From assembly GCA_037447655.1 (NCBI GenBank), contig JBBHKE010003456.1, positions 1 through 64,000 on the forward strand: a stretch of 64,000 nucleotides of DNA, read 5' to 3'. Under the pieces are notes generated by a model, which made no database searches, was not told the DNA's origin, and was given only the letters and a program-made list of their open reading frames with translations. The DNA comes from Zygnema cylindricum. Its lineage: Eukaryota; Streptophyta; Zygnematophyceae; Zygnematales; Zygnemataceae. Of this stretch, positions 18,577 through 47,162 are shown in pieces; positions within the stretch are counted from its first letter, which is position 1, and each line of letters opens with the position of its first letter. The position numbers were made by a program, and so were the translations under genes.

Positions 18577-18611
18577 CGTTTGTTCCTAGTTTCAACACTA
18601 TCGCTTCACCA

Positions 18612-19280
18612 ATGAACGATTTGCTCAAGAATGAAGTTCATTTCGTTTGGGGACCTGATAAGATTTCACTGTTTCATAAGTTGAAAGATGCCCTCTCTAT
18701 TCCTCCGATTCTCCGACCTCCAAATCACAAATTACCTTTCTGTCTACAAACAGACTTTGGTAAGCGTGGCATCGCGGCCATCTTAACTCAGCTAGAACTA
18801 ACAGGAGAAGAATACGTGGTTGCTTACGCAAGCAGAAGTAATAATCGTGTTGCATCAAATTACAGTTGTAATCAAGGAGAATGTTTGGCAACAGCTTGGG
18901 GTATTTTACACTTTGGTCACTACCTTTACGGAAAACCGTTTACACTTCTAACCGACCATCAACCCTTACATTGGCTGATGACGAATGATAAACTATCAGG
19001 AAATTAGCGCGATGGGCATTAACTTTACACGAATATGATGTGGAAATAATACACCGTCCAGGATTACTTAGTCTAAATGCAGACGCCATTTCTCGAAATC
19101 CTTTGCCAAAGACCATAGACAATGGAGTCCGACAAGATATCGATGACGACTTAGCTACTATGTCAGTAGGTTTTTATATCACATATTCTTTAACTTCGCT
19201 GCCCAAATCCCAATCTACTCCAGATCCATGCCGAGACGCAGCACTAATTCTTTTCCTCTCCTCACAAACTTTCTGACCAG
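18612..19280 (+). pseudogene. pol: Gypsy A RNase H and linker
   Basis: 18612-19007 encodes QTDFGKRGIAAILTQ, VAYASRSNN, and [12 protein letters not shown], the standard Gypsy RNase H order. A stop follows at 19005. 19040-19276 encodes the linker EIIHRPGLLSLNADAISRNP. Confidence 0.85.
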
Positions 19281-19852: not shown

Positions 19853-19857
19853 GACAC

Positions 19858-20750
19858 TGTTGTTTTTGAAAATCTTTAAGTCTCAGCAAATTTATAGGAC
19901 GGCGGAAAAATAGATCTATATGGACACGCGTCATCACTTGAATCACAGTACAGGTTTTTGACACCGACAACGCAGCTGCGACGCAGATGGAACAAGCGCA
20001 GCTGCGGTTATTTTTGATATGATCTGTACGGACAACCGCAGCCTGCAACGCAACGGGTCAAACGCAACTGCGGATATTTTGGTACATAACAACGCAGTTG
20101 CTACGCTGCAAGACAAACGCAGCTGCAGCAAACTTTTGTATGTGATAACGTAGCTGCTACGAAGCTGCAGATATGTTTGAATATAATCAGGAATTGAACT
20201 GCGCTACTGCGGTTGATTCGAATTAAGTCAACGGACGAGATTCACTAAGCCAGGCGACAAGTATTTGATTAAATAACCTGTATAGGTTTCTTAGTCATAT
20301 TGAGTGTGCAAAGATAGATTAGTGATTAGGTGCACTTGACCTTAGTGGCAGTTTAGTTCTTTTGGACGTATCTTGTAGGACCACTTGTATCAGCGGCACA
20401 GCACTATGTAGAAATACAACTAAGTGAAGAGTATAAGACTTGGGACGTAGAACATTTTATGTATCCAGACTTCCAGACTGTGTAATCTGCATACTGTTTT
20501 TGGGAAACTTCTGAGTTGCATATCTTGATGTATGTTGGATCAATTGAGCTGAAACTTTGGGAGTTGTTAGTCTTTGTGATATTCTATACTGCTTTATAGT
20601 TTGAAGTAGTTTGGTTCATTGTATCAGATTTGGTGAGCTGTAGAAAACAGCTGTTTAATAGGATTCTTGATAAGCTTCTGTGAGTGGGATTATGTCTACT
20701 TCCACTACTACTGCTGATGATCCACTTGCTCCGGTGGTTGTAGAACAACA
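19858..20750 (+). repeat. Copia-2 LTR 1
   Basis: Begins TGTTGTTTTTGAAAAT and ends GAACAACA. It has a cluster of CGCAGCTGCG-like palindromes at ~19969-20175. Gag ATG is at 20692. About twenty differences from LTR 2 by eye (~2%). Confidence 0.95.
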
Positions 20751-23439
20751 GGTTATGGGCCTTTCATCAAGAATTCCTATTTTCTCGGGAGAAAAATACG
20801 CGTATTGGGCGGATATGGTGGAAACACACTTCGAAAATGTTAATCTTTTGGATATTTTGGATGGTTCACTAGCAGAATCAGATCCGTCATGGTCAAAGAA
20901 AAATTCGCAAGCTCGGTCAATTCTGAAGTTTTGTATTTCAGAAGAATTGGCCATGTCACGGATAAAAATGAAAAAGGCGCTCGATATCTGGAAATCTCTC
21001 AAGGATGATTTTGAAAAGGCTAATGTACAGGAAGAGTTATTTTTGGCTGGACGAGTTTGGGACTACAAATACACGAGTGGCACAATGGCTAAATATTGTA
21101 ACAAATTTCGAATACTAATAGATTCTCATGCTTGTGCAGGCGGATCTTTTCCTCAGTTTCAGCAGGCTGCTTTGCTAATGAGGGGTCTTCCTAATACTAT
21201 GAGAGCAGCGTCTGATAGGCTGAAACAAAAAGATAAAGCTAACTGGACACTACAGTTAGCTATTAATTTGATATTGGAAGAGGAGGCAGATTCTAAAATT
21301 CTTAATAGTGAAAAACACGTAGAGGCATTTAACACAGAATTTGACAAAAAAAGTCATGGATACAAATTTTGTCCTAAGCTTAAAAAGGCTAATGAAACAT
21401 GTCTATATAGGCCTGGTTGGCAGCAAAGCCAGTTTCATCAAGGCTTCACGCGATCGTCACAACGAGGAAATGCACTATTCTCGGCGTCTTCATCTCATCA
21501 TGACGAGCCTCTATCACTCTCTAACGAGGAGGATGATGATCTATTTGCAATGGCGGCAGCGATGGAGGGCGCTAAAGACAATGGATGGATCATGGACACG
21601 GGAGCATCGGCCCACATGTGTTGGAACAAGGCAGTTTTCAAAAATCTGAAATCAACACTAGAGAAAAATATCTACTATGCATGTGGAATGAGTGTGCAAA
21701 CGCGGGCTGTAGGCGATGTTTCCCTGCTAGTTGATGTAGAGGGCAAAGCTGTTGAGAGAACTCTTCATAATGTTCTTTATGTCTCGGATTTTAAGAAAAA
21801 TTTGTTCTCAACGTCTTTGGTAGAGAGTAAAGGGTTTGAGGTCAATCTGAAACACGGCAGGCAGGTTGTTAGCAAACATGGGAAAATTGGAGTTACGGGA
21901 ACTAGAGATGCCAGCAAAATGTATCGAATAGATATGCCCGATAATAAAGAAAATGATGTTTTGTATTCCGGTGCATTATCTTCAGATGAGCTGTGGCATA
22001 AAAGGTTAGGCCATGTGAATTATGATAGTAAGAAAAAGATGGTCACTGCTGGTAAAGTAGAAGGAATCACATTGTCAAACCAGTCACCTAAAACGTGTGA
22101 TGGATGTGCACTAGGAAAAATACACAGATTACCGTTTCCTCAGGAGTCTGAACACAGATCTACTAAACTCTTGCAACTCATTCATTCTGATGTTTTCGGC
22201 CCTGCAAAGGTACCATCTGCCGGGGGGATGAAATATATGGTTACGTTTACAGATGATTTTTCAAGGTTTACTAAGGTCTACTTCATGAAAGAAAAGAGTG
22301 AAGTCTTCACTCACTTTCAACACTACAAAGCGTGGGCGGAGAAATTACACGGTCGGCCAATTCTGGAGCTCAGATCGGATAATGGTGGAGAATATACGTC
22401 AAAAGAGTTTGAAAACTTCTTACTCAATGAAGGTATCAGTCACAAACTGACTGTCCCATACTCTCCGGAACAGAATGGGGTCTCAGAAAGACTTAATAGA
22501 ACTATCACAGAGAGCTCTAGGTCCATGCTTGCGGATAAAAACGTAGATCCGAAATTCTGGGCTGAAGCGTTAAATTGTGCAGTTTATATCAAAAATAGGA
22601 TAGGATCAAGATCGGTAGACACCACTCCTTATGAGATCTGGACGGGCAGAAAACCGGATGTCAGCCACTTCAAGGTCTTTGGAAGTAAATGTTTTATTTT
22701 GGATACGTCTAATGATAGATGGAAAATGGAACCTAAGGGATTGCCGGGGATTTTGTTAGGATATGATGATCACTCTAAAGGTTATAGAGTCTTTGTTTTT
22801 GAAAGACAGAAAATCATTGTCGCAAGGAATATCGTTGTGAAAGATGAACTAGACTCGATAGACTTATTTAAAATGACAGAGCAGCAGAAGCAGCAAAAAG
22901 TACAAGAATATGTCATTTTAGATAGCATCCATAATATTGTCCAACAGATACAAAATTCACCAGTGGTTCCACCAGAGTCGGACAATAATTGGGTTCCGCA
23001 ACAAGTTCGTTTCGAAGCGCAACAGCAGCAGTCAGTGCCTACGGATCGCAACCAGCGCAACAAGCGCAACGCACGGGATCCAACAATTTCAGCCTCAGAA
23101 TTTCCGGGGGGAAAAAGATCCAGTAGCCGCCTGCAAGCAAGTTCTCACTTTGCGTACTCGGCAGCCTCAGGGGAGCCTCTGACCATCCGGGAAGCCTTCT
23201 CCTCACCGGAGCGGAATCACTGGATCGAGGCGGCAAACGACGAAATGAAGTCGATCATGGAGGCTCAGACATGGGAGCTTGTGGACCTTCCTCCGGATCG
23301 AAAAGCGATTGGCAGCAAATGGGTATTCAAGGTGAAGTTAAATCCGATAATACCATCGAACGATACAAGGCTAGACTTGTGGCAAAGGGTTATAACCAAA
23401 AGGAAGGAATTGACTTTGAAGAAACCTTTTCTCCTGTAA
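20692..23439 (+). CDS. gag-pol: Copia-2 body 1 gag-protease-integrase-RT start, open until a 1-nt deletion
   Basis: The ATG at 20692 lies in LTR 1. Order: gag core (YAYWADMVETHFENVN...), protease DTGASAHMC (DTGA 21594-21605), integrase zinc module LWHKRLGHVNYD and CDGCALGKIHRLPF, core IHSDVFGP, RSDNGGEYTSKEF, PEQNGVSERLNRT (intact D,D,E), then the RT entry WIEAANDEMKSIMEAQTWEL and SKWVFKVKLNP. A one-base deletion near 23343 relative to body 2 moves RT to another frame, and this frame ends at 23439. No CCHC zinc knuckle is visible in gag. Long, clean frame: a young element. Confidence 0.92.
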   Translation: MSTSTTTADDPLAPVVVEQQVMGLSSRIPIFSGEKYAYWADMVETHFENVNLLDILDGSLAESDPSWSKKNSQARSILKFCISEELAMSRIKMKKALDIWKSLKDDFEKANVQEELFLAGRVWDYKYTSGTMAKYCNKFRILIDSHACAGGSFPQFQQAALLMRGLPNTMRAASDRLKQKDKANWTLQLAINLILEEEADSKILNSEKHVEAFNTEFDKKSHGYKFCPKLKKANETCLYRPGWQQSQFHQGFTRSSQRGNALFSASSSHHDEPLSLSNEEDDDLFAMAAAMEGAKDNGWIMDTGASAHMCWNKAVFKNLKSTLEKNIYYACGMSVQTRAVGDVSLLVDVEGKAVERTLHNVLYVSDFKKNLFSTSLVESKGFEVNLKHGRQVVSKHGKIGVTGTRDASKMYRIDMPDNKENDVLYSGALSSDELWHKRLGHVNYDSKKKMVTAGKVEGITLSNQSPKTCDGCALGKIHRLPFPQESEHRSTKLLQLIHSDVFGPAKVPSAGGMKYMVTFTDDFSRFTKVYFMKEKSEVFTHFQHYKAWAEKLHGRPILELRSDNGGEYTSKEFENFLLNEGISHKLTVPYSPEQNGVSERLNRTITESSRSMLADKNVDPKFWAEALNCAVYIKNRIGSRSVDTTPYEIWTGRKPDVSHFKVFGSKCFILDTSNDRWKMEPKGLPGILLGYDDHSKGYRVFVFERQKIIVARNIVVKDELDSIDLFKMTEQQKQQKVQEYVILDSIHNIVQQIQNSPVVPPESDNNWVPQQVRFEAQQQQSVPTDRNQRNKRNARDPTISASEFPGGKRSSSRLQASSHFAYSAASGEPLTIREAFSSPERNHWIEAANDEMKSIMEAQTWELVDLPPDRKAIGSKWVFKVKLNPIIPSNDTRLDLWQRVITKRKELTLKKPFLL
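20751..20762 (+). other. Copia-2 primer-binding site, body 1
   Basis: GGTTATGGGCCT directly after LTR 1; it pairs with the initiator tRNA-Met anticodon arm except at the last base. Translated as part of gag (QVMGLSS). The body 2 copy is at 25901-25912. Confidence 0.8.
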
Positions 23440-24750
23440 TAAGATTTCCAAGAGTTAGGATTTTGCTATCTCTAGCTGCTATAGAAGATATGGAAATCCA
23501 TCAAATGGATGTAAAGACGGCCTTTTTGCATGGAGAACTAGAGGAGACCATTTACATGCAGCAGCGTGAAATGTATGCAGAACCACGAAAAGAGCACTTA
23601 GTATGTAAACTGCTAAAATCGTTGTACGGCCTAAAACAGGCCCCGAGGCAATGGAATCTAAAACTTGATGAATTCTTAACTGGTCTAGGCTTTAAAAGGA
23701 TAAGCTCTGATCGCTCTGTCTATGTTCTACAGGGTGAGGATGGAATAGTATATATAGCTGTATACGTAGATGATCTACTATTAGTCAGCAAATCAATAGC
23801 TGGAATTAACAAAATTAAAACTGCTTTGAAATCACGGTTTGAGATGAAAGACCTCGGTGAGGCAAAAAATATCTTGGGTATTCAGGTAGAGAGGGACAGG
23901 AAAAACAGATTGATACAATTGACTCAAAAGAAGGCTATTGGAAACTTGTTAGATGAATATGGAATGCGGGGGGCAAAAGGATGTGTAACACCAATGGAGT
24001 TTCGGCATAAGTTAGAGGGGGAAGAAACAGAACCGGGTGTAATTGTCAGTGAAATTTTTGGGTCAGGGGAGGATGATCCTATGACACAGATACCTTACAG
24101 ACAGATAGTGGGAAGTTTAATATACTTCATGAATTGTACCCGTCCTGACATTGCTGCAGCAGTCGGGGTACTGAGCAGAAGTCTAGAGAATCCGAAAAAA
24201 ATCTGACCGTGATGCAGCAAGAAGAGTTTTAAGATACTTGGCAGGAACCAAAGACCTCAAACTCACACTAGGCGGAGGAGAAGTGAAGCTACAAACATGG
24301 AGTGATGCAAGTTATGGCGATATGCCGAGTCGAAAATCCACCACGGGATTCGTTCTTCAAATTGGGAATGGGACTTGCTGTTGGAGCAGCAAACTTCAAA
24401 AAGTCACCGCACAATCGACGATGGAATCAGAATATATGGCAGCTAGCTCGGCCCTCAAAGAACTCCTATGGGTGAAATCCATGTTACAAGAGTTGGGATA
24501 CATGCAGGTTGGCCCACAAGTGATCTGGTGTGATAACGAGGCTGCCATTGCCATTGCTTCTAACCCAAGTCACCATTTCAAAAGCAAGCACATGGATGTA
24601 AGATTACACTTTGTAAGAGAAAAAGTGTTCTCTAGAGTGATTAAATTATGCTATTTGCCAAATGCAAAAATGGTTGTTGATATGCTCACTAAAGCTCTTC
24701 CGGCTCCTAAACTGAAGTACTGTAGGGACGCAGTGGGATTAAGTGAGTAG
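23343..24750 (+). pseudogene. pol: Copia-2 body 1 RT and RNase H, out of frame with gag
   Basis: RT continues from ~23343 to 24206 (ERYKARLVAKGYNQKEG; YVDD at 23763-23774). A +1 change in an A run near 24196 shifts the frame; RNase H resumes 24206-24750 (SDASYGD, WCDNEAAIAIA, KSKHMDVRLHFV). Two single-base lesions inactivate an otherwise intact pol. Confidence 0.9.
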
Positions 24751-24805
24751 CTCAGTTGCTGCTCTAATCCAATGACAGGGATATATTGGGACTACGTGAC
24801 TTGCT

Positions 24806-24979
24806 AAAATTGCTATGTTGCTATGTTGCGATGCTGCGCTAGTTCCAAATCGCAGCTGCTCTGAAAATTGCTACGTTGTTATGCTGCGATGCTGCGCTAG
24901 TTCGAAATCGCAGCTGCTCTGAAAATTGCTACGTTGCTATGCTGCGATGCTGCGCTAGTTCGAAATCGCAGCTGCTCTG
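24806..24979 (+). repeat. 58-bp x3 minisatellite in Copia-2 body 1 3' UTR
   Basis: Three copies of a 58-bp unit starting AAAATTGCTAYGTTG and containing GCGATGCTGCGC and CGCAGCTGCTCTG. Each unit echoes the CAGCTG palindromes of the LTR. Confidence 0.9.
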
Positions 24980-25007
24980 ACATAGTGAGTCTAAAGCTTT
25001 AGGGGAG

Positions 25008-25900
25008 TGTTGTTTTTGAAAAGCTTTAAGTCTCAGCAAATTTATAGGACGGCGGAAAAATAGATCTATATTGACACGCGTCATCACTTGAATCACAGTA
25101 CAGGTTTTTGGCACCGACAACGCAGCTGCGACGCAGATAGAACAAGCGCAGCTGCGGTTATTTTTGATATGATCTGTACCGACAACCGCAGCCTGCGACG
25201 CAACGGGTCAAACGCAACTGCGGATATTTTGGTACATAACAACGCAGTTGCTACGCAGCAAGACAAATGCAGCTGCGGCAAACTTTTGTATGTGATAACG
25301 TAGCTGCTACGAAGCTGCGGATATGTTTGAATATAATCAGGAATTGAACTGCGCTACTGCGATTGATTTGAATCAAGTCAACGGACGAGATTCACTAAGC
25401 CAGGCGACAAGTATTTGATTAAATAACCTGTATAGGATTCTTAGTCATATTGAGTGTGCAAAGATAGATTAGTGATTAGGTGCACCTGACCTTAGTGGCA
25501 GTTTAGTTCTTTTGGACGTATCTTGTAGGACCACTTGTATCAGCGGCACAGCACTATGTAGAAGTACAACTAAGTGAAGAGTATAAGACTTGGGACGTAG
25601 AACATTTTATGTATCCAGACTTCCAGACTGTGTAATCTGCAAACTGTTTTTGGGAAACTTCTGAGTTGCATATCTTGATGTATGTTGGATCAATTGAGCT
25701 GAAACTTTGGGAGTTGTCAGTCTTTGTGATATTCTATACTGCTTTATAGTTTGAAGTAGTTTGGTTCATTGTATCAGATTTGTTGAGCTGTAGAAAACAG
25801 CTGTTTAATAGGATTCTTGATAAGCTTCTGTGAGTGGGATTATGTCTACTTCCACTACTACTGCTGATGCTCCACCTGCTCCGGTGGTTGTAGAACAACA
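25008..25900 (+). repeat. Copia-2 LTR 2 (shared)
   Basis: Acts as 3' LTR of body 1 and 5' LTR of body 2. Same TG...CA ends and length as LTRs 1 and 3. Gag ATG of body 2 at 25842. Confidence 0.95.
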
Positions 25901-28067
25901 GGTTATGGGCCTTTCATCAAGAATTCCTATTTTCTCGGGAGAAAAATACGCGTATTGGGCAGATATGGTGGAAACACACTTCGAAAATGTTAATCTTTTG
26001 GATATTTTGGATGGTTCACTAGCAGAATCAGATCCGTCATGGTCAAAGAAAAATTCGCAAGCTCGGTCAATTCTGAAGTTTTGTATTTCAGAAGAATTGG
26101 CCATGTCACGGATAAAAATGAAAAAGGCGCTCGATATCTGGAAATCTCTCAAGGATGATTTTGAAAAGGCTAATGTACAAGAAGAGTTATTTTTGGCTGG
26201 ACGAGTTTAGGACTACAAATACACGAGTGGCACAATGGCTAAATATTGTAACAAATTTCGAATACTAATAGATTCTCATGCTTGTGCAGGCGGATCTTTT
26301 CCTCAGTTTCAGCAGGCTGCTTTGCTAATGAGGGGTCTTCCTAATACTATGAGAGCAGCGTCTGATAGGCTGAAACAAAAAGATAAAGCTAACTGGACAC
26401 TACAGTTAGCTATTAATTTGATATTGGAAGAGGAGGCAGATTCTAAAATTCTTAATAGTGAAAAACACGTAGAGGCATTTAACACAGAATTTGACAAAAA
26501 AGGTCATGGATACAAATTTTGTCCTAAGCTTAAAAAAGCTAATGAAACATGTCTATATAGGCCTGGTTGGCAGCAAAGCCAGTTTCATCAAGGCTTCACG
26601 CGATCGTCACAACGAGGAAATGCACTATTCTCGGCGTCTTCATCTCATCATGACGAGCCTCTATCACTCTCTAACGAGGAGGATGATGATCTATTTGCAA
26701 TGGCGGCAGCGATGGAGGGCGCTAAAGACAATGGATGGATCATGGACACGGGAGCATCGGCCCACATGTGTTGGAACAAGGCAGTTTTCAAAAATCTGAA
26801 ATCAACACCAGAGAAAAATATCTACTATGCATGTGGAATGAGTGTGCAAACGCGGGCTGTAGGCAATGTTTCCCTGCTAGTTGATGTAGAGGGCAAAGCT
26901 GTTGAGAGAACTCTTCATAATGTTCTTTATGTCCCAGATTTTAAGAAAAATTTGTTCTCAACGTCTTTGGTAGAGAGTAAAGGGTTTGAGGTCAATCTGA
27001 AACACGGCAGGCAGGTTGTTAGCAAACATGGGAAAATTGCAGTTACGGGAACTAGAGATGCCAGCAAAATGTATCGAATGGATATGCCCGATAATAAAGA
27101 AAATGATGTTTTGTATTCCGGTGCATTATCTTCAGATGGGCTGTGGCATAAAAGGTTAGGCCATGTGAATTATGATAGTATGAAAAAGATGGTCACTGTT
27201 GGTAAAGTAGAAGGAATCACATTGTCAAACCAGTCACCTAAAACGTGTGATGGATGTGCACTAGGAAAAATACACAGATTACCGTTTCCTCAGGAGTCTG
27301 AACACTGATCTACTAAACTCTTGCAACTCATTCATTCTGATGTTTTCGGCCCTGCAAAGGTACCATCTGCCGGGGGGATGAAATATATGGTTACGGATGA
27401 TTTTTCAAGGTTTACTAAGGTCTACTTCATGAAAGAAAAGAGTGAAGTCTTCACTCACTTTCAACACTACAAAGCGTGGGCGGAGAAATTACACGGTCGG
27501 CCAATTCTGGAGCTCAGATCGGATAATGGTGGAGAATATACGTCAAAAGAGTTTGAAAACTTCTTACTCAATGAAGGTATCAGTCACAAACTGACTGTCC
27601 CATACTCTCCGGAACAGAATGGGGTCTCAGAAAGACTTAATAGAACTATCACAGAGAGCTCTAGGTCCATGCTTGCGGATAAAAACGTAGATCCGAAATT
27701 CTGGGCTGAAGCGTTAAATTGTGCAGTTTATATCAAAAATAGGATAGGATCAAGATCGGTAGACACCACTCCTTATGAGACCTGGACGGGCAGAAAACCG
27801 GATGTCAGCCACTTTAAGGTCTTTGGAAGTAAATGTTTTATTTTGGATACGTCTAATGATAGATGGAAAATGGAACCTAAGGGATTGCCGGGGATTTTGT
27901 TAGGATATGATGATCACTCTAAAGGTTATAGAGTCTTTGTTTTTGAAAGACAGAAAATCATTGTCGCAAGGAATATCGTTGTGAAAGATGAACTAGACTC
28001 GATAGACTTATTTAAAATGACAGAGCAGCAGAAGCAGCAAAAAATACAAGAATATATGTCATTTTAG
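25842..28067 (+). pseudogene. gag-pol: Copia-2 body 2 gag-protease-integrase, two stops
   Basis: Nearly identical to body 1 but broken by TAG at 26208-26210 (TGG in body 1) and TGA at 27306-27308 (AGA in body 1). An in-frame 6-bp deletion near 27395 removes two residues just before the second integrase conserved block. A 2-bp insertion near 28053 ends the frame at 28067. Protease DTGA and the integrase D,D,E blocks are otherwise preserved. Confidence 0.9.
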
Positions 28068-28108
28068 ATAGCATCCATAATATTGTCCAACAGATACAAA
28101 ATTCACCA

Positions 28109-29896
28109 GTGGTTCCACCAGAGTCGGACAATAATTGGGTTCCGCAACAAGTTCGTTTCGAAGCGCAACAGCAGCAGTCAGTGCCTACGGATCGCAACCA
28201 GCGCAACAAGCGCAACGCACGGGATCCAACAATTTCAGCCTCAGAATTTCTGGGGGGAAAAAGATCCAGTAGCCGCCTGCAAGCAAGTTCTCACTTTGCG
28301 TACTCGGCAGCCTCAGGGGAGCCTCTGACCATCCGGGAAGCCATCTCCTCACCGGAGCGGAATCACTGGATCGAGGCGGCAAACGACGAAATGAAGTCGA
28401 TTATGGAGGCTCAGACATGGGAGCTTGTGGACCTTCCTCCCGATCGAAAAGCGATTGGCAGCAAATGGGTGTTCAAGGTGAAGTTAAATCCAGATAATAC
28501 CATTGAACGATACAAGGCTAGACTTGTGGCAAAGGGTTATAACCAAAAGGAAGGAATTGACTTTGAAGAAACCTTTTCTCCTGTTGTAAGATTTCCAACA
28601 GTTAGGATTTTGCTATCTCTAGATGCTATAGAAGATATGGAAATCCATCAAATGGATGTAAAGACGGCCTTTTTGCATGGAGAACTAGAGGAGACCATTT
28701 ACATGCAGCAGCGTGAAATGTATGCAGAACCACGAAAAGAGCACTTAGTATGTAAACTGCTAAAATCGTTGTACGGCCTAAAACAGGCCCCGAGGCAATG
28801 GAATCTAAAACTTGATGAATTCTTAACTGGTTTAGGCTTTAAAAGGATAAGCTCTGATCACTCTGTCTATGTTCTACAGGGTGAGGATGGAATAGTATAT
28901 ATAGCTGTATACGTAGATGATCTACTATTAGTCAGCAAATCAATAGCTGGAATTAACAAAATTAAAACTGCTTTGAAATCACGGTTTGAGATGAAAGACC
29001 TCGGTGAGGCAAAAAATATCTTGGGTATTCAGGTAGAGAGGGACAGGAAAAACAGATTGATACAATTGACTCAAAAGAAGGCTATTGGAAACTTGTTAGG
29101 TGAATATGGAATGCGGGGGGCAAAAGGATGTGTAACACCAATGGAGTTTCGGCATAAGTTAGAGGGGGAAGAAACAGAACCGGGTGTAATTGTCAGTGAA
29201 ATTTTTGGGTCAGGGGAGGATGATCCTATGACACAGATACCTTACAGACAGATAGTGGGAAGTTTAATATACTTCATGAATTGTACCCGTCCTGACATTG
29301 CTGCAGCAGTCGGGGTACTGAGCAAAAGTCTAGAGAATCCGAAGAAATCTGACCGTGATGCAGCAAGAAGAGTTTTAAGATACTTGGCAGGAACCAAAGA
29401 CCTCAAACTCACACTAGGCGGAGGAGAAGTGAAGCTACAAACATGGAGTGATGCAAGTTATGGCGATATGCCGAGTCGAAAATCCACCACGGGATTCGTT
29501 CTTCAAATTGGGAACGGGACTTGCTGTTGGAGCAGCAAACTTCAAAAAGTCACGGCACAATCCACGATGGAATCAGAATATATGGCAGCAAGCTCGGCCC
29601 TCAAAAAACTCCTATGGGTGAAATCCATGTTACAAGAGTTGGGATACATGCAGGTTGGCCCACAAGTGATCTGGTGTGATAACCAGGCTGCCATTGCCAT
29701 TGCTTCTAACCCAAGTCACTATTTCAAAAGCAAGCACATGGATGTAAGATTACACTTTGTAAGAGAAAAAGTGGTCTCTAGAGTGATTAAATTATGTTAT
29801 TTGCCAGATGCAAAAATGGTTGCTGATATGCTCACTAAAGCTCTTCCGGCTCCTAAACTGAAGTACTGTAGGGACGCAGTGGGATTAAGTGAGTAG
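28109..29896 (+). CDS. pol: Copia-2 body 2 RT-RNase H, intact open frame
   Basis: Open for 595 codons: RT entry (NHWIEAANDEMKSIMEAQTW), FSPVVRFPTVRILLSL, YVDDLLLVSKS, then RNase H (SDASYGDMPSRKSTTGFVL, WCDNQAAIAIA) ending VGLSE and TAG at 29894-29896. No own start is needed because it is the polyprotein's C-terminal part. It lies in a different frame from the upstream integrase because of the 2-bp insertion. Confidence 0.92.
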   Translation: MVPPESDNNWVPQQVRFEAQQQQSVPTDRNQRNKRNARDPTISASEFLGGKRSSSRLQASSHFAYSAASGEPLTIREAISSPERNHWIEAANDEMKSIMEAQTWELVDLPPDRKAIGSKWVFKVKLNPDNTIERYKARLVAKGYNQKEGIDFEETFSPVVRFPTVRILLSLDAIEDMEIHQMDVKTAFLHGELEETIYMQQREMYAEPRKEHLVCKLLKSLYGLKQAPRQWNLKLDEFLTGLGFKRISSDHSVYVLQGEDGIVYIAVYVDDLLLVSKSIAGINKIKTALKSRFEMKDLGEAKNILGIQVERDRKNRLIQLTQKKAIGNLLGEYGMRGAKGCVTPMEFRHKLEGEETEPGVIVSEIFGSGEDDPMTQIPYRQIVGSLIYFMNCTRPDIAAAVGVLSKSLENPKKSDRDAARRVLRYLAGTKDLKLTLGGGEVKLQTWSDASYGDMPSRKSTTGFVLQIGNGTCCWSSKLQKVTAQSTMESEYMAASSALKKLLWVKSMLQELGYMQVGPQVIWCDNQAAIAIASNPSHYFKSKHMDVRLHFVREKVVSRVIKLCYLPDAKMVADMLTKALPAPKLKYCRDAVGLSE

Positions 29897-29951
29897 CTCA
29901 GTTGCTGCTCTAATCCAATGACAGGGATATATTGGGACTACGTGACTTGCT

Positions 29952-30125
29952 AAAATTGCTATGTTGCTATGTTGCGATGCTGCGCTAGTTCCAAATCGCA
30001 GCTGCTCTGAAAATTGCTACGTTGTTATGCTGCGATGCTGCGCTAGTTCGAAATCGCAGCTGCTCTGAAAATTGCTACGTTGCTATGCTGCGATGCTGCG
30101 CTAGTTCGAAATCGCAGCTGCTCTT
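29952..30125 (+). repeat. 58-bp x3 minisatellite in Copia-2 body 2 3' UTR
   Basis: Same three-unit array as 24806-24979, with one changed base near its end. It was therefore already present in the parent element. Confidence 0.9.
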
Positions 30126-30153
30126 ACATAGTGAGTCTAAAGCTTTAGGGGAG

Positions 30154-31046
30154 TGTTGTTTTTGAAAAGCTTTAAGTCTGAACAAATTTATAGGACGGCG
30201 GAAAAATAGATCTATATTGACACGCGTCATCACTTGAATCACAGTACAGGTTTTTGGCACCGACAACGCAGCTGCGACGCAGATGGAACAAGCGCAGCTG
30301 CGGTTATTTTTGATATGATCTGTACCGACAACCGCAGCCTGCGACGCAACGGGTCAAACGCAACTGCGGATATTTTGGTACATAACAACGCAGTTGCTAC
30401 GCAGCAAGACAAACGCAGCTGCGGCAAACTTTTGTATGTGATAACGTAGCTGCTACGAAGCTGCGGATATGTTTGAATATAATCAGGAATTGAACTGCGC
30501 TACTGCGGTTGATTCGAATCAAGTCAACGGACGAGATTCACTAAGCCAGGTGACAAGTATTTGATTAAATAACCTGTATAGGATTCTTAGTCATATTGAG
30601 TGTGCAAAGATAGATTAGTGATTAGGTGCACTTGACCTTAGTGGCAGTTTAGTTCTTTTGGACGTATCTTGTAGGACCACTTGTATCAGCGGCACAGCAC
30701 TATGTAGAAGTACAACTAAGTGAAGAGTATAAGACTTGGGACGTAGAACATTTTATGTATCCAGACTTCCAGACTGTGTAATCTGCAGACTGTTTTTGGG
30801 AAACTTCTGAGTTGCATATCTTGATGTATGTTGGATCAATTGAGCTGAAACTTTGGGAGTTGTCAGTCTTTGTGATATTTTATGGTGCTTTGTAGTTTGA
30901 AGTAGTTTGGTTTATTGTATCAGATTTGGTGAGCTGTAGAAAACAGCTGTTTAATAGGATTCTTGATAAGCTTCTGTGAGTGGGATTATGTCTACTTCCA
31001 CTACTACTGCTGATGCTCCACCTGCTCCGGTGGTTGTAGAACAGCA
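30154..31046 (+). repeat. Copia-2 LTR 3
   Basis: 893 bp, ends AGAACAGCA, followed directly by the GACAC target duplication. The precise end defines the LTR boundaries of the other two. Confidence 0.95.
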
Positions 31047-31051
31047 GACAC

Positions 31052-31613
31052 GCCCATAGACCATCATCGACAAGGCGAGATCATCCACAGGCTGATAGAT
31101 TGGCGAAACATGCAATTCAAACCTTCAAGCTAGCATTACACCAACATTGTTTGGAGAAACATATTATAATTTGGAACGAGTCCCTCGGTTACATTACCAT
31201 GGGATATCGAATGTATGAACAAGCGAGCCTTGCTAATTTCAGTCCATAATATGTCTTATTCGGGCCTTAACCCTTGTTGTGTACGAATATCAAAAAAGCT
31301 GCAAGCTTCGTGCTTCCCTTACTGTCAGACGAGGTTTTTTTGGAAAAACTTACTAACAGGACGCTGTCTTTTGCCCGAGAGATGCCCATGGCTTTTGAAA
31401 ACTTGCAGATTGCCCAACACCAAGATACTTTGGGCTTTGCCACTACACGCAGTGGCAGCTATCAGCCTTAGCAAAAGCCTTACAAAGTGGGAGATTATGT
31501 CTACTTACGGCGACAATCGTTCGATACTTTGGACACAAATGTTTCACCTGATATTCTCCGAATTATTGAAGTTAAAACGAATGGCATGTTAGGACTTCAA
31601 GGAGCAAATACAT
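31052..31613 (+). pseudogene. pol: Gypsy A integrase C-terminal part after Copia-2
   Basis: Resumes where 19852 stopped. Decayed HPQADG.VER block with the third catalytic position, then TFKLALHQHCLEKHIIIW, GYRMYEQA, and the SH3-like tail (VGDYVYLRRQSFDT, GMLGLQGANT). Several frameshifts. A TGA after GANT is shared with copy B. Confidence 0.8.
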
Positions 31614-31714
31614 GAAACTTTCGTGAGCATTCGAAGAAACGTGCTTCATGTTATTTACCAGATCTCTCCCAGGACAAGGACCCTATACGTATGCCTATCA
31701 CTGAGGCAATAGAA

Positions 31715-31849
31715 TGCACACTTTGCAATCGAGCCAACGGAGAAACATCAATGCTTTTATGGGACCATTGAAACTAGTGATTTCACATGGAGTGTTTGGT
31801 TCCTCCGTTAACAACGATTCCGGACGGTCATTGGTTTTGTCACGCCTCT
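31715..31849 (+). pseudogene. Gypsy A C-terminal PHD finger
   Basis: PHD fingers are C4HC3 zinc modules that usually read histone H3 tails. In one frame: CTLC (31715-31726), then MLLWDH with Trp and TGA where the next two cysteines would be, then FHMECLVPPLTTIPDGHWFC, ending HAS where the last Cys would be. Spacing, the H..C pair, the PPL..IP.G.WFC core and order match a PHD finger. Stop codons TGA, TAG, TGA (31769-31780) interrupt it. Copy B has the same stops. Confidence 0.68.
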
Positions 31850-32094
31850 TGAGAGTTACTAGTCGTATTGGCTTGCTCTTTGGCAGGCTAAAGATTTGGG
31901 GGGGGGTATAAACTGAGCCTCCTAGCTTCCTCTCTCACCCTACCTTTATTTTTCTTGTGATATGTTTATTTGTTGTTTATTGCTTGTACACATTTATGTT
32001 CACTTGTTTTTTGAGATGTTCATGACTTTGTTGCTTATTTCTTTATCATTTATCTTGTAGCTGATTGTGTTAGATTTGTCACATGCACGACAGT

Positions 32095-33345
32095 TGTCAT
32101 GCCGTATCACCTCGCCGCATTTTAACCGCATCTTAAGCGTATTTTCATCGCATTCTAATTGCATTTAATTGCATTTACTCCCATAAAACCGGCACTTTAA
32201 GACAAACGCCTCACTTATTTGAGTTTATTAGGATTTGGTTATGGCAGGATGTACAGATTGGAGTCAGTACGAGAAATTGCCAAGCACCGTAAAACGAGCG
32301 AACAAGATTTAGGTTCACACGTAGATTCGTTAGGCGCCAGAATTTACGCGAACAAGTTTAAATTTTCGTACGTACGATTGGCGAACTGAAGCGCCAACGT
32401 GGAAATATGTCAAGACCAGCAGGAATTCAAACGCGCCTCTACGGCCACAATTGATACAGACGAACGAACGATAAGGATTCAAAGTGCGCGCAGCAACAAC
32501 AATTGGTCAATTTTAAGTTGTGGAAACTATGATGTCTCACTCATTCATATGTAGCGTAGGAAGGGTTTTTATCCTTAGGTTGTAGATTTTGTAACGCAAG
32601 GCATATGATTCAGGTTGCCTATTGGCCTGAATCCAAACTAGGCGCAACAACTACATAAAACTCATGTATGTAGAGTAAGTTAGACGCTCAACTTTAGACT
32701 TGGAACTTAATGAATTTTAGGTGAATTTTGTGCTCACAATTTCAAGAGCACAAGAATTCATGCTTTCATTCTTTCTTTCTTTCTTTTTTGGAAGATTTGA
32801 TCTTTGCTTTTATTATTTTCTTATGAAATGGTCAGTACATTTTTAGTGACTATTTTTCTGGTCATTAAGCGTATTGTTGCCTAGCTCGCACTCAACTTTC
32901 TTTGTAATTTTCCTCGCAATTTAATCTATGCGGCTCACGTTGAGGCCTAACCGGTTTCTCTTCACTTCTTCTCTCGTCTTATCAAGTGGATTGCTGCTCT
33001 ACCTTTTTTTTCAGACTATTGCTGAACCTTGGATTGTGATTGGAAAGTTTTGGGTTTGCTTATGTGGTTTACTTGGTGATAGTTGATTAGGGTTGGCTTT
33101 CCTTATATGTTTTGGGTGTGACTAAATCTGGTTATCTCAAATTTGCTCGCAGTTTGGTACATTTTATGTTTATGTGTTGTGATATTAGGTTAAATCTTTA
33201 TTTATTAAACTCCTTCAAGGAATATAAACTGACCAAAGAGCATAGTGGCTATCCGTTGGCTTAATATTTTAAATCTTTATTTATTCAACTCCTGAAAGGA
33301 ATATAAACTATCCAAAGAGCCTAGTGGCTATCCATTGGCTTAATA
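32095..33345 (+). repeat. Gypsy A 3' LTR
   Basis: Starts TGTCATGCCGTATCACC. It matches, in opposite orientation, the interrupted LTR of copy B at 52590-45682 and the partial LTR 35572-33346. Its last ~155 bp is a direct duplication (33191-33269 and 33270-33345). The exact 3' end is uncertain because it abuts an inverted LTR at 33345/33346. Confidence 0.75.
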
Positions 33346-37342: not shown

Positions 37343-37734
37343 AACTTCTGCCCAACACTTAAAATCAGGTCCCACCATTTCCATCTCTCGCTATCGAGAG
37401 AAACTTTCAATTGCCGCAACACATGTTACCAACTAGTAGGCGTTGACTTTTGAAATCTCTTAGAGGCGTAATCTTCTTGTCGTGCATGTGACAAAGGAAA
37501 TGATAAACACGCAACACAACCAGCAGAAAGATAAATGACAAAGAAATAAACAAGAAAGTCATGGACAAATCGGGAAAATCTGCGACACAAATTTGTACAA
37601 GCAGCAAGCAACAAATAAACATATCACAAGAAAAATAAAGGTAGGGTGAGAGAGGAAGCTAGGAGGCTCAGTTTATTCCCCCCCCCAACTTTTTAGCCTG
37701 CCAAAGAGCAAACCAATACGGCTAGTAACTCTCG

Positions 37735-37869
37735 AGAGGCGTGACAAAACCAATGACCGTCCGGAACCGTTGTTAACGGAGGAACCAAACACTCCATGTG
37801 AAATCACTAGTTTCAATGGTCCCATAAAAGCATTGATGTTTCTCCGTCGGCTCGATTGCAAAGTGTGCA
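37735..37869 (-). pseudogene. Gypsy B C-terminal PHD finger
   Basis: Same module as in copy A: CTLCNRADGETSMLLWD..., then FHMECLVPPLTTVPDGHWFC. It carries the same TGA-AAC-TAG-TGA stretch after WDH and the same Ser at the last Cys. In B the frame runs on after it (HASRELLAVLVCSLAG). A zinc module in the place where chromoviruses carry a chromodomain; function inferred only. Confidence 0.68.
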
Positions 37870-37968
37870 TTCTATTGCCTCAGTGATAGGCATACGTATA
37901 GGGTCCTTGTCCTGGGAGAGATCTGGTAAATAACATGAAGCACGGTTCTTCGAATGCTCACGAAAGTT

Positions 37969-39033
37969 TCATGTATTTGCTCCTTGAAGTCCTAACATGC
38001 CATTCGTTTTAACTTCAATAATTCGGAGAATATTAGGTGAAATATTTGTGTCCAAAGTATCGAACGATTGGCGCAGTAAGTAGACATAATCTTCCACTTT
38101 GTAAGGCTTTTGCTGAGGCTGATAGCTGCCACTGCGTGTAGTGGCAAAGCCCAAAGTATCTTGGTGTTGGGCAATCTGCAAGTTTTCAAAAGCCATGGGC
38201 ATCTCTCGGGCAAAAGACAGCGTCCTTTTAGTAAGTTTTTCCAAAAAAACCCCGTCAGACAGTAAGGGAAGCACGAAGCTTGCAGCTTTTTGGATATTCC
38301 TACACAACAAGGGTTAAGGCCCGAATAAGACATATTATGGACTGAAATGATCAAGGCTCGCCTGTTCATACATTCGATATCCCATGGTAATGTAACCGAG
38401 GGACTCGTCCCAAATTGTAATATGTTTCTCCAAACAATGTTGGCGTAATGCTAGCATAAAGGTTTGAACTGCACGTTCCACCTGTCCATCAGCTTGTGGA
38501 TGATCTTGGCTTGTTCGACGATGGTCTATGAGCATGTTATCTAGCATTTCTTAGAATTCTCCGCGGAATTTAGTCCCTTGATCTTTGAGGACTTTGGCTG
38601 GAGCGCCGTATCTCATAAGGATATGTTCCTTAAAAGTGGCGGTGGTGAGCTTTGGAGTTTTATATGGTAACGCTACTAGTTCAACCCATTTGCTAAAATT
38701 TTCAATCATGATCATTATATATTGTTTCCCCCTCCACGATATGGGAAAGGGACCTGCCAAATCGCATGACCAGCGACATAATAACCCTTTGATGGGTAAT
38801 GGTTGAAGGATAGTCCGCCGGTTGCTAAAAGTGGTGCGCATACCATCACATATTGCACACTTGTGCAATACCGATGCGACATCAGATTGCATCCTAGACC
38901 ACCAATAGCGTGCTTCAAGCAAGCTTAAGGTGCGCTTAGTCCAATAGTGACCCAACTCGGTGTGAATTTGTTCGATCAACGAGAGGCGTTCAGTCGGCCG
39001 AGGCATGTGTATGTGACTACCGTTTGCTAACAA
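37969..39033 (-). pseudogene. pol: Gypsy B integrase
   Basis: HHCC module (IHTELGHYWTKRTL; CAICDGMRTTF) and core CDLAGPFP...DQGTKFRGEF are open from 39033 to 38551. TAA follows GEF, as in copy A. The next frame 38547-38335 carries HPQADGQVERAVQTF with the catalytic Glu. The tail 38310-37969 has the VEDYVYLLRQSFDTLDTN block. Confidence 0.88.
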
Positions 39034-39779
39034 TCAAACAAGGGATCCACCTAACCACATATAATTTTTAGCTCTTTTCTTTACTCGTTCCTCCTCCTCG
39101 TATGTTGTGCCTGGTCGAAAAGTTTGTGAGGAGAGGAAAAGAATTAGTGCCCCGTCTCGGCATGGATCTAGAGTAGAACGGGAGTTGGGCAGCGAAGCTA
39201 AAGAATGTGTGATACAAAACCCTACTGACATAGTAGCTAAGTCGTCATCGAAATATTTTCGGACTCCATTGTCTATGGTCTTTGGCAAAGGATTTCGGGA
39301 AATGCCGTTTGCATTTAGACTAAGTAATCGTGGACGGTGTATTATTTCCACATCATATTCGTGAAAAATTAATGCCTATCGCGCTAATTTCCTCATAGTT
39401 AATCATTCGTCATCAGCCAATGTAAGGGTTGATGGTCGGTTAGAACTGTAAACGGTTTTCCGTAAAGGTAGTGACGAAAGTGTACAATACCCCAAGCTGT
39501 TGCCAAACATTCTCCTTGATTTCAATTGTAATTTGACGCTGCATGATTATTTCTTCTGCTTGCGTAAGCAACCACGTATTCTTCTCCTGTTAGTTTTAGC
39601 TGAGTTAAGATGGCCGCGATGCCACGCTTACCAAAGTTTGTTTGTAGACAGAAATGTAATTTGTGATTTGGACGTCGGAGAATCGGAGGAATAAAGAGGG
39701 CATCTTTCAACTTATGAAACACTGAAATCTTAACTGGTCCCCAAACGAAAGGAACTTCTTTCTTAAGCAAATCATTCAA
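39034..39779 (-). pseudogene. pol: Gypsy B RNase H and linker
   Basis: 39779-39522 encodes WGPVKISVFHKLKDAL, QTNFGKRGIAAILTQLKLT and VAYASRRNN. The continuation to ~39360 is frameshifted (tethering DHQPLHW region). 39351-39034 is the linker EIIHRPRLLSLNANGISRNP. Confidence 0.82.
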
Positions 39780-40820
39780 TGGTGAAGCGATAGTGTTGAA
39801 ACTAGGAACAAACCTACGATAATAATTAGCTTATCGTAGGAAGGCTCGAAGACTCATGAGATCAACAAGGGTTGCCAGTTTGCCGATAGCCTCGGTTTTT
39901 GCTTAAGTGGTGTGATTCCCTTGGAGGAAATGAAATGTCCAAGGTAAGGCACACCCTCAGACCCGAAAGTACATTTAGTTGGATGACATTTTTATTCGAC
40001 CTTTTTCAGTTCAGTTAATACCCATTCGATATGAGCTGCGTGATCTTCAATTGTGGCATAGGCGATAATCAAATCATCAATATAACATTGTGCAAACTTG
40101 CAACCACCTAAAACTGAATCCATTACTTTTTAAAAAACTGGCAGGGCGTTCTTAAGTCCAAAAGGCATCACAAACCATTCCCAACAACCATCACTACCCT
40201 AAAAGGCGGTTTAATGCCTATCGTTCTCCTCTATTTCAATCTAGTTAAAGCCTCATCGTTAATCAAGAATACTAAAATATTTAGTGCCTCCTACATGATC
40301 AAATATTTATTCGGCCAATGAGGTTGGGTGTCGATCTTGTATAGTTGTAGCCTTTAGTTCACGCTAATCGCCGCACATACGACGATCGGTAAAGTTTCCT
40401 TCGGCATCTTTTTTTCGGGGCATGATAGTGGGTGCTCCAAAAGTAGAGTCCGGCCGATAAATGAGGCTAACTTCCTCCAATTCAGTGCAGTGTTGGTCCA
40501 CTAATTCCCATTCCGTTTTGGATAAGCGGTGTTTTCGCTTGAAAAATGGGACGATCGTCTTCGAGATCTATAGACATTTTATAGGTGGTATGGCGACCAA
40601 GATCATTCATAGAGAAAGCAAAAGCGTCGATATTTTGAAGAATCACTTCGTTTAGTACGTCATGTTCAGATTGAGAGAGATTAGAGCCAAATTTTCATTT
40701 AGGAGTTTCCGAACCTTCAAACGTTATCGGTTCCATGGCTTGTGCAAAAGCTTTCTTTTCATCCGCGATAAGTGACTGACCTAATGAGTAAACAACTGGT
40801 GTTTCCTATAAGCAATTTGT
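39780..40820 (-). pseudogene. pol: Gypsy B reverse transcriptase
   Basis: RT entry GLIYRPDSTFGAPTIMPRK lies near 40460-40410. The catalytic block CYIDDLIIAYA has YIDD codons at 40084-40073, followed by CTFGSEGVPYLGHFISSKG. At least ten stop codons interrupt it. This is the part deleted from copy A. Confidence 0.85.
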
Positions 40821-41060: not shown

Positions 41061-42240
41061 TGATAATGCATTCCTCCCCCCTAGTTGGTTGAGACAAAAA
41101 TCCGAGGCCTAAGACAAATGAGACAGATTGAGGGTCCATGACACGACCCAAAAGGATGCATTGTTGTCGTTCAGTGAGAGCGTGAGAAGTTGTAGTGTTG
41201 GGAAGGAAATGCATAAAGTGTTCCCGTTCTGTGGATGTAGGTTCATCTAGGCCGCCTGTGTGAATATTTCTAAGCAGACCGGGCCCATCAACAGAGAAAG
41301 CGTGAGAGTGTGGATAAGACACTAGAGTGGGGAGAACTTTAAGTGGTTAACCAAAGACGTTAATGTTGTTATTCGGCGAGTGATCAGGCTGCTGACATGT
41401 TTCGACTTTGTGAAAAGGCAGAAGGGCAGTCTGAATATTTGTAAAAAGGGGGTCTGACACAAAGATTTCCTTCTCTATGGCGACCAATATAAATCAAGTT
41501 GGTCCATTTAGATTGAACGCGATGAGCTAAGGACTCGTGACGAGCGGCATCAATGTTAAGAGGAGGACTAATTAATGCTTCTATCCGCTTGTAATCAGCT
41601 AACACCGTAGGTCGAGGATCGTTAATGGATGCCACGTTTTCCAAAATATATCCTAATGGTCGATCTAATGATTGCAAAAAATGCATGATACAAAGTAATT
41701 CGAAGAATAATTAAGTGCGACGGTTAGCTAAGCAGAGACCTTTGCCTGCTCATGACATTCCCTGACACTCCCTACCGGCAAAGAGAAGATCGATTGGTTC
41801 CACATCGAGAAGGTGTTGATTGCCTATCAAACAAATATCTTGAGGTAAGGTTGTATGCATGTGAGCAAAGGGAGATTAAGGGAAAAGATGTGGATATTGT
41901 TCGTGTAAAAGTTTACAGTGATGTGTCTGGGCTTTCCGAGCTAAAGGGTCAGTGTCAACAGATTAGTAGTGCTTGATAAGTAATCCGTTGCGAAGGCATG
42001 AGAGTAGAGAGGTACCTATGCCTGCGAATAGGTCTAAAATGACTATACCATCTTGATGAGGTTTGACCTGAATTGGTTTCCGATTAATGGGAAGAAAACT
42101 GGAAGGATCTACGGAAATGAGAGTAATAGGTGGAACTCCAGATAATGGAATCTGAAGGGTGTGTTTGTAGATGTGATCAAACTCGCGAGAATCAATAATA
42201 AAACCTGGATTATCGAAAATTTTAGGCAAAGAGGGACTTT
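41061..42240 (-). pseudogene. Gypsy B C5-cytosine DNA methyltransferase domain
   Basis: Motif I DLFAGIGTSLLSCLRNG (DLFAGIG codons 42034-42014), VDTDPLARKAQ, motif IV GRECQGMS (catalytic Cys at 41767-41765; the CQG is intact here), TGA after GMS as in copy A, motif VI LENVASINDPRPTVLADYK, motif VIII DAARHESLAHRVQSKWTNL, then LTERQQCILLGRVMD and FVLGLGF. The two copies complement each other at motif IV and VIII. Located between protease and RT on the same strand as pol. Shared stops show the family consensus was already damaged or that both derive from one dead copy. Confidence 0.83.
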
Positions 42241-42355
42241 CGGGAAAAAATTCTTTTGCGGATAGAGAATGAAAAATTTCAAATCCCACCGAATTTCCGA
42301 AATATGTAGGGATAGACTGGGTTGCGTGAGCCATAATGGGTATGGGTTGTCGTGC

Positions 42356-43129
42356 TTAAATTAGCGGGAGACAAATATTCTTTTCCGGATAATTGATAAG
42401 ACGGTAGGAAAAAGTCTCATCATACATATCAACGCCGCCTCCTTCTCTGAAAATCACATCTTCCCCCACAAAATACTCGTAATCACTACATTTGGTGACT
42501 AATGCGTGAGCACGGACTTCCGCAAAATCAGATTTTGTACCGTTTTGAAACCTAAAACACAGTGGATTATTTGAAATGCGCAAAACTGGTTCGTTAAATC
42601 CCGCTGAGGTGAGTAAACTTGTGGTGGTAGACTGAATTTTATCAACTGTCAGACATAGTTTCAGTGAAAAAGATGACCCCAAAAAAACTGGTTTTGCACT
42701 GGTGTCCATAAGTGGTAATAACGGTATGATACCATTGACCGAAAATGCACCCTTCCCATTATCTATAAAACTGATGAGTGGGTCAAGTGAACTACGCTCG
42801 TCAGTAGAGATAGGCCTAAAAGTGTCAAGATTACAGTTCAGTTGTAAAGCTTGTAATGCTGCAAATGGGATGGATGTGACGATAGTTTTAGGGTTGGGAG
42901 AATCGGAAATCATAGTAGATAAAATGCACAATCTTTCCTTAACCCTATGACTGTCCAGAATTGAGTGGAGAAGAATAGTGAGGGCTTCTAGCGTGATGGT
43001 GAAAGCTGTTTCGGGCAAATTGGTTGCGCTTTTTTTGGAAAATGATAATGGGAGACGCGTACTATACTGTTTACCCTCGCGATTATGATCAATTGTCCCT
43101 TTTTCAAACGTGGTTGCCCGCTTTTGCAT
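42356..43129 (-). pseudogene. Gypsy B aspartic protease region, open frame
   Basis: 257 codons open. LPLMDTSAKPVFLG gives a DTSA active site (codons 42706-42695), and the C-terminal block ALVTKCSDYEYFVGEDVIF is the retropepsin end. The region upstream (LPETAFTITLEALTILLHS) is shared with copy A and marks where copy A is truncated. Confidence 0.78.
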
Positions 43130-43399
43130 GGTTCAATTTCGTAAAATTCGACCAGCTAGCGTGGGAAGGTGGAGAACAGTACGGGCCATAGCAATTAGGT
43201 GAGTCACTGGTTTCATTTGAGCCATAAGAGTTGCAAACTAGTCTTTGATCATAGCGGCCATTTGAGTGTGCATTTCCTCTCTCTCTTTTTCTTTTCGATA
43301 CACTTTAGGTGGAGAGTTTTTTCTGGCTCTTTAACTAGTTCGACTACTTTGGCAGATCTAGCCGGTATTTCACCATTTCGAATCCGATTTTGATCTGAA

Positions 43400-45160: not shown

Positions 45161-45681
45161 TCAACAACGAGCTAGCAAGAAACCTTAAATATCCAAATTA
45201 GTGTAGTATATTCTTGGCCCAAAATTGGCCAAGGAGATAATTATGTCAACTAAAAAGCGAATAATAAATAAAATTGCAAAACTAGTTATAGATTTTTCTT
45301 TTCTTTAGTTTTTTTTTTCAAACAACCAAGTACAACTTAGAAGGATATTCCAAAATGCAAGGATCTATTATCAGATCACAGAAACACACAAACTAATTTA
45401 AAATCTAAATTGAAGAAAATAGAGAAAAACTGAAAATTTTAAATTGCATATAATATAGGAAAAATGTCAATGTAAAATTGCGGAAAATAGAATCACACTG
45501 ACAATGTCAAATCACAAAAAAATAGAGCAAGACTAACTATGCCAAATTATACGTAATAGAAAGTGCGCACAATTTCAAATTGTAGAACAATAGGAAAACA
45601 TACAATTTCAAATTGCAAAACAATAGGAAAACTGACAAAATTGTATAACAATAGGAAACAGATAATTTCAAGAGCACAGGA

Positions 45682-47157: not shown

Positions 47158-47162
47158 CTATG

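What the first reader, a model, noticed from the sequence alone, without database searches (positions are those of the whole stretch)
31715..31849. PHD finger downstream of integrase in the methyltransferase-bearing Gypsy (copy B at 37735-37869)
The C4HC3 spacing and the PPL..IP.G.WFC core are recognisable in both copies. It occupies the place where chromoviruses carry a chromodomain. A histone reader beside a DNA methyltransferase in one element would be a writer-reader retrotransposon, perhaps combining targeted insertion with local methylation. I know of no described Gypsy family with both.
Basis: partly seen in the sequence, partly recalled or inferred. Interest (0 to 1): 0.88.

Follow-up and report, generated by a model that had tools for sequence, protein, structure and literature searches.

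The report
Gypsy retrotransposon with PHD and methyltransferase
Two dead copies in this window belong to a family of jumping genes, with relatives in green algae, whose protein carries both a DNA-methylating enzyme and a domain that probably reads histones, so the element may write and read chromatin marks as it copies itself.

Summary
Both window copies are fossils: their PHD stretch keeps 5 of 8 zinc ligands and has three shared stops. Elsewhere in the genome the PHD is intact. One copy has a single 2395-aa frame: Gag(CCHC)-protease-DNA methyltransferase-RT-RNase H-integrase-PHD; subfamilies differ mostly at synonymous sites. The PHD is not a local host exon: of 96 element proteins found elsewhere, 87 show a C4HC3 PHD, 51 a related methyltransferase, 46 both; PHD follows the integrase core in 86 of 86. 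Named hosts are six algae and a liverwort. Nearest solved relatives include readers of unmodified H3, and the Trp typical of H3K4me3 readers is absent (0 of 106). The methyltransferase is DNMT3-like. Two copies show split direct repeats and 4-bp target duplications. The closest published element, KnitGypsy-Dnmt3 (PMC5890265), has no 'PHD' in its main text, but its figure was not visible; its enzyme gave no methylation in yeast, a test its authors call inconclusive. Architecture is shown; histone reading, targeting and methylation are inferred.

The parts
31712..31888 (+). PHD-derived stretch of copy A (the finding); 4 stops, 5 of 8 zinc ligands kept
   Evidence: tblastn with the L009 PHD, E 6e-20; ligands; stops
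37696..37872 (-). PHD-derived stretch of copy B; 3 stops, same ligands lost
   Evidence: tblastn E 4e-22
31094..31708 (+). Integrase C-terminal part of copy A
   Evidence: tblastn 72% identity to L009
19391..19864 (+). Integrase core of copy A, cut by the Copia array
   Evidence: tblastn 75% identity
18585..19093 (+). RNase H of copy A
   Evidence: tblastn
18346..18657 (+). Reverse transcriptase remnant of copy A
   Evidence: tblastn 62% identity
16822..17824 (+). DNA methyltransferase of copy A (6 stops; motif IV altered)
   Evidence: tblastn 74% and 58% identity in two pieces
16113..16641 (+). Protease region of copy A
   Evidence: tblastn
19865..31047 (+). Copia array interrupting copy A (approximate limits; not part of the element)
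   Evidence: repeats 5.15 kb apart; ORFs; break points
31905..32091 (+). Repeat B1 of copy A
   Evidence: 86% match to the copy B end
32095..33340 (+). Repeat A2 of copy A (right limit approximate); starts TGTCATGCCG after GACA-GT
   Evidence: self-BLAST; motif
37876..38490 (-). Integrase C-terminal part of copy B
   Evidence: tblastn 73% identity
38491..39000 (-). Integrase zinc binding domain and core of copy B
   Evidence: Pfam Integrase_H2C2 E 1e-13, rve 1e-6 (under its cut-off); tblastn
39298..39806 (-). RNase H of copy B
   Evidence: Pfam RT_RNaseH_2 E 1e-13; tblastn
39896..40586 (-). Reverse transcriptase of copy B (9 stops)
   Evidence: tblastn 79% identity in the main piece
41092..42073 (-). 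DNA methyltransferase of copy B (5 stops; DLFAGIG, ECQ and ENV still readable); Pfam alone did not match the two ORF pieces tried
   Evidence: tblastn 74% and 65% identity; Pfam none
42257..42793 (-). Protease region of copy B
   Evidence: tblastn
43372..43565 (-). Zinc knuckle region of copy B Gag
   Evidence: tblastn
43665..44214 (-). Gag of copy B
   Evidence: tblastn
37478..37679 (-). Terminal B repeat of copy B, ending CATGCACGACA
45681..47632 (-). Pieces of repeat A1 of copy B (45681-46300 and 47159-47632)
   Evidence: self-BLAST
52495..52590 (-). First bases of repeat A1 of copy B, parted from the rest by inserted DNA
   Evidence: self-BLAST, end printed

Best explanation
The window holds two dead copies of a Gypsy-type retrotransposon with split direct repeats whose polyprotein carries a DNMT3-like cytosine methyltransferase between protease and RT, and a PHD finger as the last domain, on the end of the integrase. 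Most likely the PHD works as the chromodomain does in chromoviruses: it stays on the integrase and tethers the pre-integration complex to histone H3, probably to tails unmethylated at K4, away from active promoters. The methyltransferase most likely methylates the element's own new DNA or fresh insertion. Shown: architecture, many copies, selection on protein sequence, recent movement, DDE-type 4-bp duplications in two copies. Inferred: histone binding, K4me0 preference, targeting, methylation.
Confidence: 0.47

Rival explanations
1. The PHD is a structural zinc module of the integrase (multimerisation, DNA or protein contacts) and reads no histone mark.
For: Nearly constant spacing to the integrase core (372-400 aa in 90 of 91) and position next to an SH3-like end domain would suit a structural part.
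Against: Features of H3-reading PHDs are kept: Asp after the third Cys in 100 of 106, MLL before it in 80 of 106; nearest structures are mostly histone readers.
Confidence: 0.25
2. The PHD with the DNMT works as a true writer-reader: the PHD brings the methyltransferase to H3K4me0 chromatin, as the ADD domain does for DNMT3 (ADD recalled, not tested).
For: Both domains in one frame; DNMT3-like enzyme; PHD of the unmodified-H3 kind.
Against: The PHD is about 1070 residues from the DNMT, at the far end beyond RT and integrase (coordinates), and a protease region lies in the polyprotein, so they are likely separated; proteins with PHD but no visible DNMT exist.
Confidence: 0.15
3. The DNMT is a catalytically dead or re-purposed domain (ECQ), kept for nucleic acid binding.
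For: Glu replaces the usual Pro before the catalytic Cys in 50 of 63 read; KnitGypsy-Dnmt3 DNMT inactive in yeast, inconclusive.
Against: The Cys of motif IV, EN of motif VI and HR.R of motif VIII are invariant in 25 aligned rows; the second own family has WPCQ; purifying selection.
Confidence: 0.12
4. The PHD is a host exon captured only at this locus, or a chance resemblance.
For: None found.
Confidence: 0.01

Closest known systems
KnitGypsy-Dnmt3 of Klebsormidium nitens (PMC5890265; abstract, sections 9 and 10 with figure legends, and passages read)
   Same: Gypsy Pol with a Dnmt3-related DNMT, intronless, purifying selection, repeats arranged as in DIRS elements.
   Different: No word 'PHD' in the main text. 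Whether its Pol has a PHD is unknown here: the figure is not held, and no protein named Klebsormidium came up.
Chromoviruses (Ty3/Gypsy with integrase chromodomain; PMC3605345, passages including part of the abstract read)
   Same: Chromatin-reader domain at the integrase C-terminus.
   Different: Chromoviral chromodomains are compared with HP1; the PHD here looks like an unmodified-H3 reader.
CR1-like non-LTR retrotransposons with esterase and PHD domains (Kapitonov and Jurka 2003; seen only as a reference title)
   Same: PHD inside a retrotransposon.
   Different: Non-LTR element, not on a DDE integrase; no DNMT known to me.
SymbioDIRS-Dnmt3 and SymbioLINE-Dnmt (PMC5890265, passages and section 10)
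   Same: Retrotransposon-borne DNMT; split repeats in the DIRS type.
   Different: Tyrosine recombinase or endonuclease instead of DDE integrase; no PHD mentioned.
Arthropod retrotransposons with a methyl-CpG binding domain (de Mendoza 2019; title in a reference list; paper not held)
   Same: A retrotransposon that captured a reader related to DNA methylation.
   Different: MBD instead of PHD; no DNMT known to me.

Membership tests
Ty3/Gypsy retrotransposon | Domain order protease-RT-RNase H-integrase with DDE (rve) core | tested here: met
   hmmscan of four pieces of the L009 frame; pieces of L013 and L011 agree as far as scanned
Ty3/Gypsy retrotransposon | Conventional LTR at each end | tested here: not met
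   Split direct repeats A1-coding-B1-A2-B2 in C1344 and C2234
Ty3/Gypsy retrotransposon | TG..CA ends with short target duplication | tested here: met
   TGTC..GACA ends; 4-bp duplications TTGG and TAGA in 2 of 4 copies with both ends seen
Chromovirus | Chromodomain at the integrase C-terminus | tested here: not met
   No chromodomain match at E 0.01 in integrase-end pieces of L009, L013, L011 or in five relatives
DIRS element | Tyrosine recombinase | tested here: not met
   rve integrase found, no Phage_integrase match in the scanned pieces; the non-coding parts were not scanned
KnitGypsy-Dnmt3 | DNMT3-type methyltransferase inside Gypsy Pol | tested here: met
KnitGypsy-Dnmt3 | DIRS-like repeat arrangement | tested here: met
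   against the legend read
KnitGypsy-Dnmt3 | Common descent with the K. nitens element | not testable with these tools
   No protein named Klebsormidium was retrieved
PHD finger PF00628 | C4HC3 ligands, score over the gathering cut-off | tested here: met
   40-41 bits against 24 in L009, L013, L011; ligands incomplete in the window copies themselves
H3K4me3-reading PHD | Trp two residues before the His ligand (recalled) | tested here: not met
   0 of 106; Gly in 92
DNMT3 | Closest similarity to DNMT3 catalytic domains, with motifs I, IV, VI, VIII | tested here: inconclusive
   DNMT3A best PDB match, but motif IV has Glu for Pro in 50 of 63 read and no tree with host DNMTs was made

The most novel reading that the evidence does not exclude
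A lineage of Gypsy-like elements found in chlorophyte and streptophyte hosts uses an integrase-borne PHD to insert into H3K4-unmethylated chromatin and a self-encoded DNMT3-like enzyme with an ECQ active site to methylate its own DNA there: a retrotransposon that both reads and writes the host epigenome. The integrase-PHD union is older than the split between its two main clades, and the DNMT later changed its place in the polyprotein.
Probability: 0.33. Interest if true: 0.87.

Novelty: new variant of a known kind. Interest (0 to 1): 0.73.

Why it matters
It would show a second route to chromatin-aware integration beside the chromodomain, joined in one element to a DNA methyltransferase. It makes an open question testable, why some retrotransposons keep DNMTs: relatives with PHD alone, with both domains, and with the DNMT in another place offer natural variants whose insertion sites and methylation can be compared.

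Tried and rejected
Local host exon: rejected. Chance motif: rejected. Chromodomain or tyrosine recombinase: not found in the pieces scanned. Species: not identified; the rbcL search did not complete, and the nearest protein hit had 63% identity. Fold of the methyltransferase: never accepted. dS for most between-subfamily pairs is saturated or undefined, so only its excess is used. PHD of the C82 copy: first missed by a text pattern, then found cut by a deletion. TSD of window copy B: none. In VIA-align no chain described as an H3K4me3-reading PHD stood in the 50 rows, which proves nothing. P0097-P0106 match as host PHD proteins and were dropped before the counts of 96. In one search one of the 61 motif rows (P0024) was a false pattern match; one search recounted inside the DNMT interval (50 E, 12 P, 1 A, 26 not read, of 89). 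The second own family does not fit my strict C4HC3 text pattern: its first pair is spaced C-x3-C.

Full report
What is in the window. The window is G000:C2587:1-64000 of a 352.8-Mb genome in 2689 contigs; the species is not identified. Translating 31715-31849 (+) gives CTLCNRANGETSMLLWDH*N**FHMECLVPPLTTIPDGHWFCHAS; the copy B stretch differs at 2 of 135 bases. A profile of seven intact PHDs of the same genome scores 117-120 bits at these places and at most 8.0 in 20 shuffles. Three of eight ligands are lost and three stops are shared by both copies, so both most likely descend from an already broken copy. Domain searches place the rest: copy B runs on the minus strand from Gag at 44214 to the end of the B repeat at 37478, with its first repeat broken into pieces up to 52590; copy A on the plus strand is parted by a Copia array into 16113-19864 and 31094-32091 plus its A2 repeat. 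No Gag or first repeat of copy A was found. A and B are 89-94% identical over three long blocks.

The living family. A Pfam search of the whole genome for PHD gave 984 candidates, of which 150 were scored, all over the cut-off; not all are elements (L001 and L010 look like host genes, by inference). DNA_methylase gave 782 candidates, 123 scored. Pairing the lists, 20 of 150 PHD hits have a methyltransferase hit upstream on the same strand (16 of 20 at 3.9-4.2 kb); no pair within 9 kb has another arrangement. These are lower bounds. L009 (C1344) holds one 2395-aa frame; pieces of it match zf-CCHC and Asp_protease_2 (both under their cut-offs), DNA_methylase, RVT_1, RT_RNaseH, Integrase_H2C2, rve and PHD. 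L013 and L011, whose frames are interrupted, give matching domains in the pieces scanned. A second family (L022, L039, L040) has DNMT, RT, RNase H, integrase and a C-terminal stretch that matches the PHD at 36-39% identity (E about 1e-7) but with its first pair spaced C-x3-C, outside my strict pattern.

Selection and youth. Between three subfamilies the PHD differs by dN 0.11-0.18 with saturated dS, and differing codons are mostly synonymous (PHD 17-23 synonymous against 8-12 non-synonymous of 47). For the methyltransferase, L009 against L020 gives dN 0.089, dS 0.772. C1407 and C1344 copies are 99.92% identical over 6002 bases, with different 3' flanks; the two A repeats of C1344 are identical over 931 bases. 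The family moved recently.

Ends and repeats. C1344 is A1(931)-coding-B1(242)-A2(931)-B2(243); C2234 has the same order with 1135- and 193-base repeats. Ends are TGTC...GACA, flanked by TTGG and TAGA on both sides respectively. The C449 copy and window copy B show no matching duplication, and the C1407 5' end was not found in the stretch fetched. B1 and A2 are joined by GC in the five copies read (C1344, C2234, C1506, C1407, C449) and by GT in window copy A. This is the split-repeat plan that the legend of PMC5890265 describes for KnitGypsy-Dnmt3, with a DDE integrase instead of a tyrosine recombinase. I infer that the GACA-GC-TGTC junction records the joined ends of the DNA copy.

Relatives elsewhere. 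A search with the integrase end plus PHD gave 106 proteins; 96 are element proteins. Named sources are Haematococcus lacustris, Volvox africanus, Chromochloris zofingiensis (read from the code Chrzof), Pseudoscourfieldia marina and the liverwort Calypogeia fissa, the last a short match without a visible PHD; methyltransferase searches add Mesostigma viride (code Mesvir) and Closterium sp. NIES-54. Most rows are unnamed. C4HC3 is found in 87 of 96, a methyltransferase related to that of L009 in 51 of 96, both in 46, PHD after integrase in 86 of 86. Of 80 proteins in which RNase H, integrase and its end were found, 74 have a PHD, 61 a DNMT and 56 both; one search was made with the DNMT, so the DNMT share is biased upward.

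Two plans. In the own families and P0003 the DNMT precedes RT; 79 of 89 relatives with a DNMT have it between RNase H and integrase (some judged from the DNMT-integrase gap alone). A quick integrase tree of 115 rows, without bootstrap, puts the four own rows with 11 others in one clade (SH-aLRT 98) and 94 rows in another (89); six rows, mostly long, stay outside, among them P0091, whose DNMT precedes RT. Of those 11 others only P0003 shows a DNMT; the other frames have 0 to 172 residues before the RT match, or no RT, so a DNMT upstream in another frame would not be seen. In a DNMT tree of 82 rows one clade for the ten pre-RT or protease-DNMT rows is not rejected (AU p 0.649). Simplest reading: integrase-PHD is ancestral, and the DNMT was moved, or taken twice from similar sources.

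Mechanism. Best supported: the PHD stays on the integrase and guides insertion to H3 tails unmethylated at K4, in the manner of a chromodomain; the methyltransferase marks the element's own DNA, as the abstract of PMC5890265 suggests for other retrotransposon DNMTs. Only the anatomy, selection and youth are shown here.

Known or new. Paper searches brought no Gypsy element with both domains in the listings and passages I saw. KnitGypsy-Dnmt3 is the nearest, and its figure could not be checked. I therefore call this a new variant of a known kind.

Noticed in passing
P proteins; L009 3325-4344: Retrotransposon DNMTs mostly carry Glu in place of the Pro of the PCQ motif (50 of 63 read, of 89), while other motif residues are invariant in 25 aligned rows. 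The effect on catalysis is unknown.
   Followed up: partly
Relatives: The DNMT domain occupies two different places in the polyprotein: before RT, or between RNase H and integrase.
   Followed up: partly
L009 and flanks (C1344:85514-96154), C2234:512656-523870: Split direct repeats together with a DDE integrase and 4-bp target duplications; the B1-A2 junction reads GACAGCTGTC.
   Followed up: partly
P0037, P0056, P0063, P0113, P0134: Some relatives carry a G-patch domain (PF01585) in the same protein.
   Followed up: no
window 20000-31047: Copia array with near-identical sequence 5.15 kb apart and 58-base spaced tandem repeats, interrupting copy A.
   Followed up: partly
window 32653-33935 and 35218-35568: Palindromic and inverted fragments of the A repeat beside copy A.
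   Followed up: no
P0087 (Pseudoscourfieldia marina): A 600-residue gap between RNase H and integrase without a detectable DNMT; content unknown.
   Followed up: no
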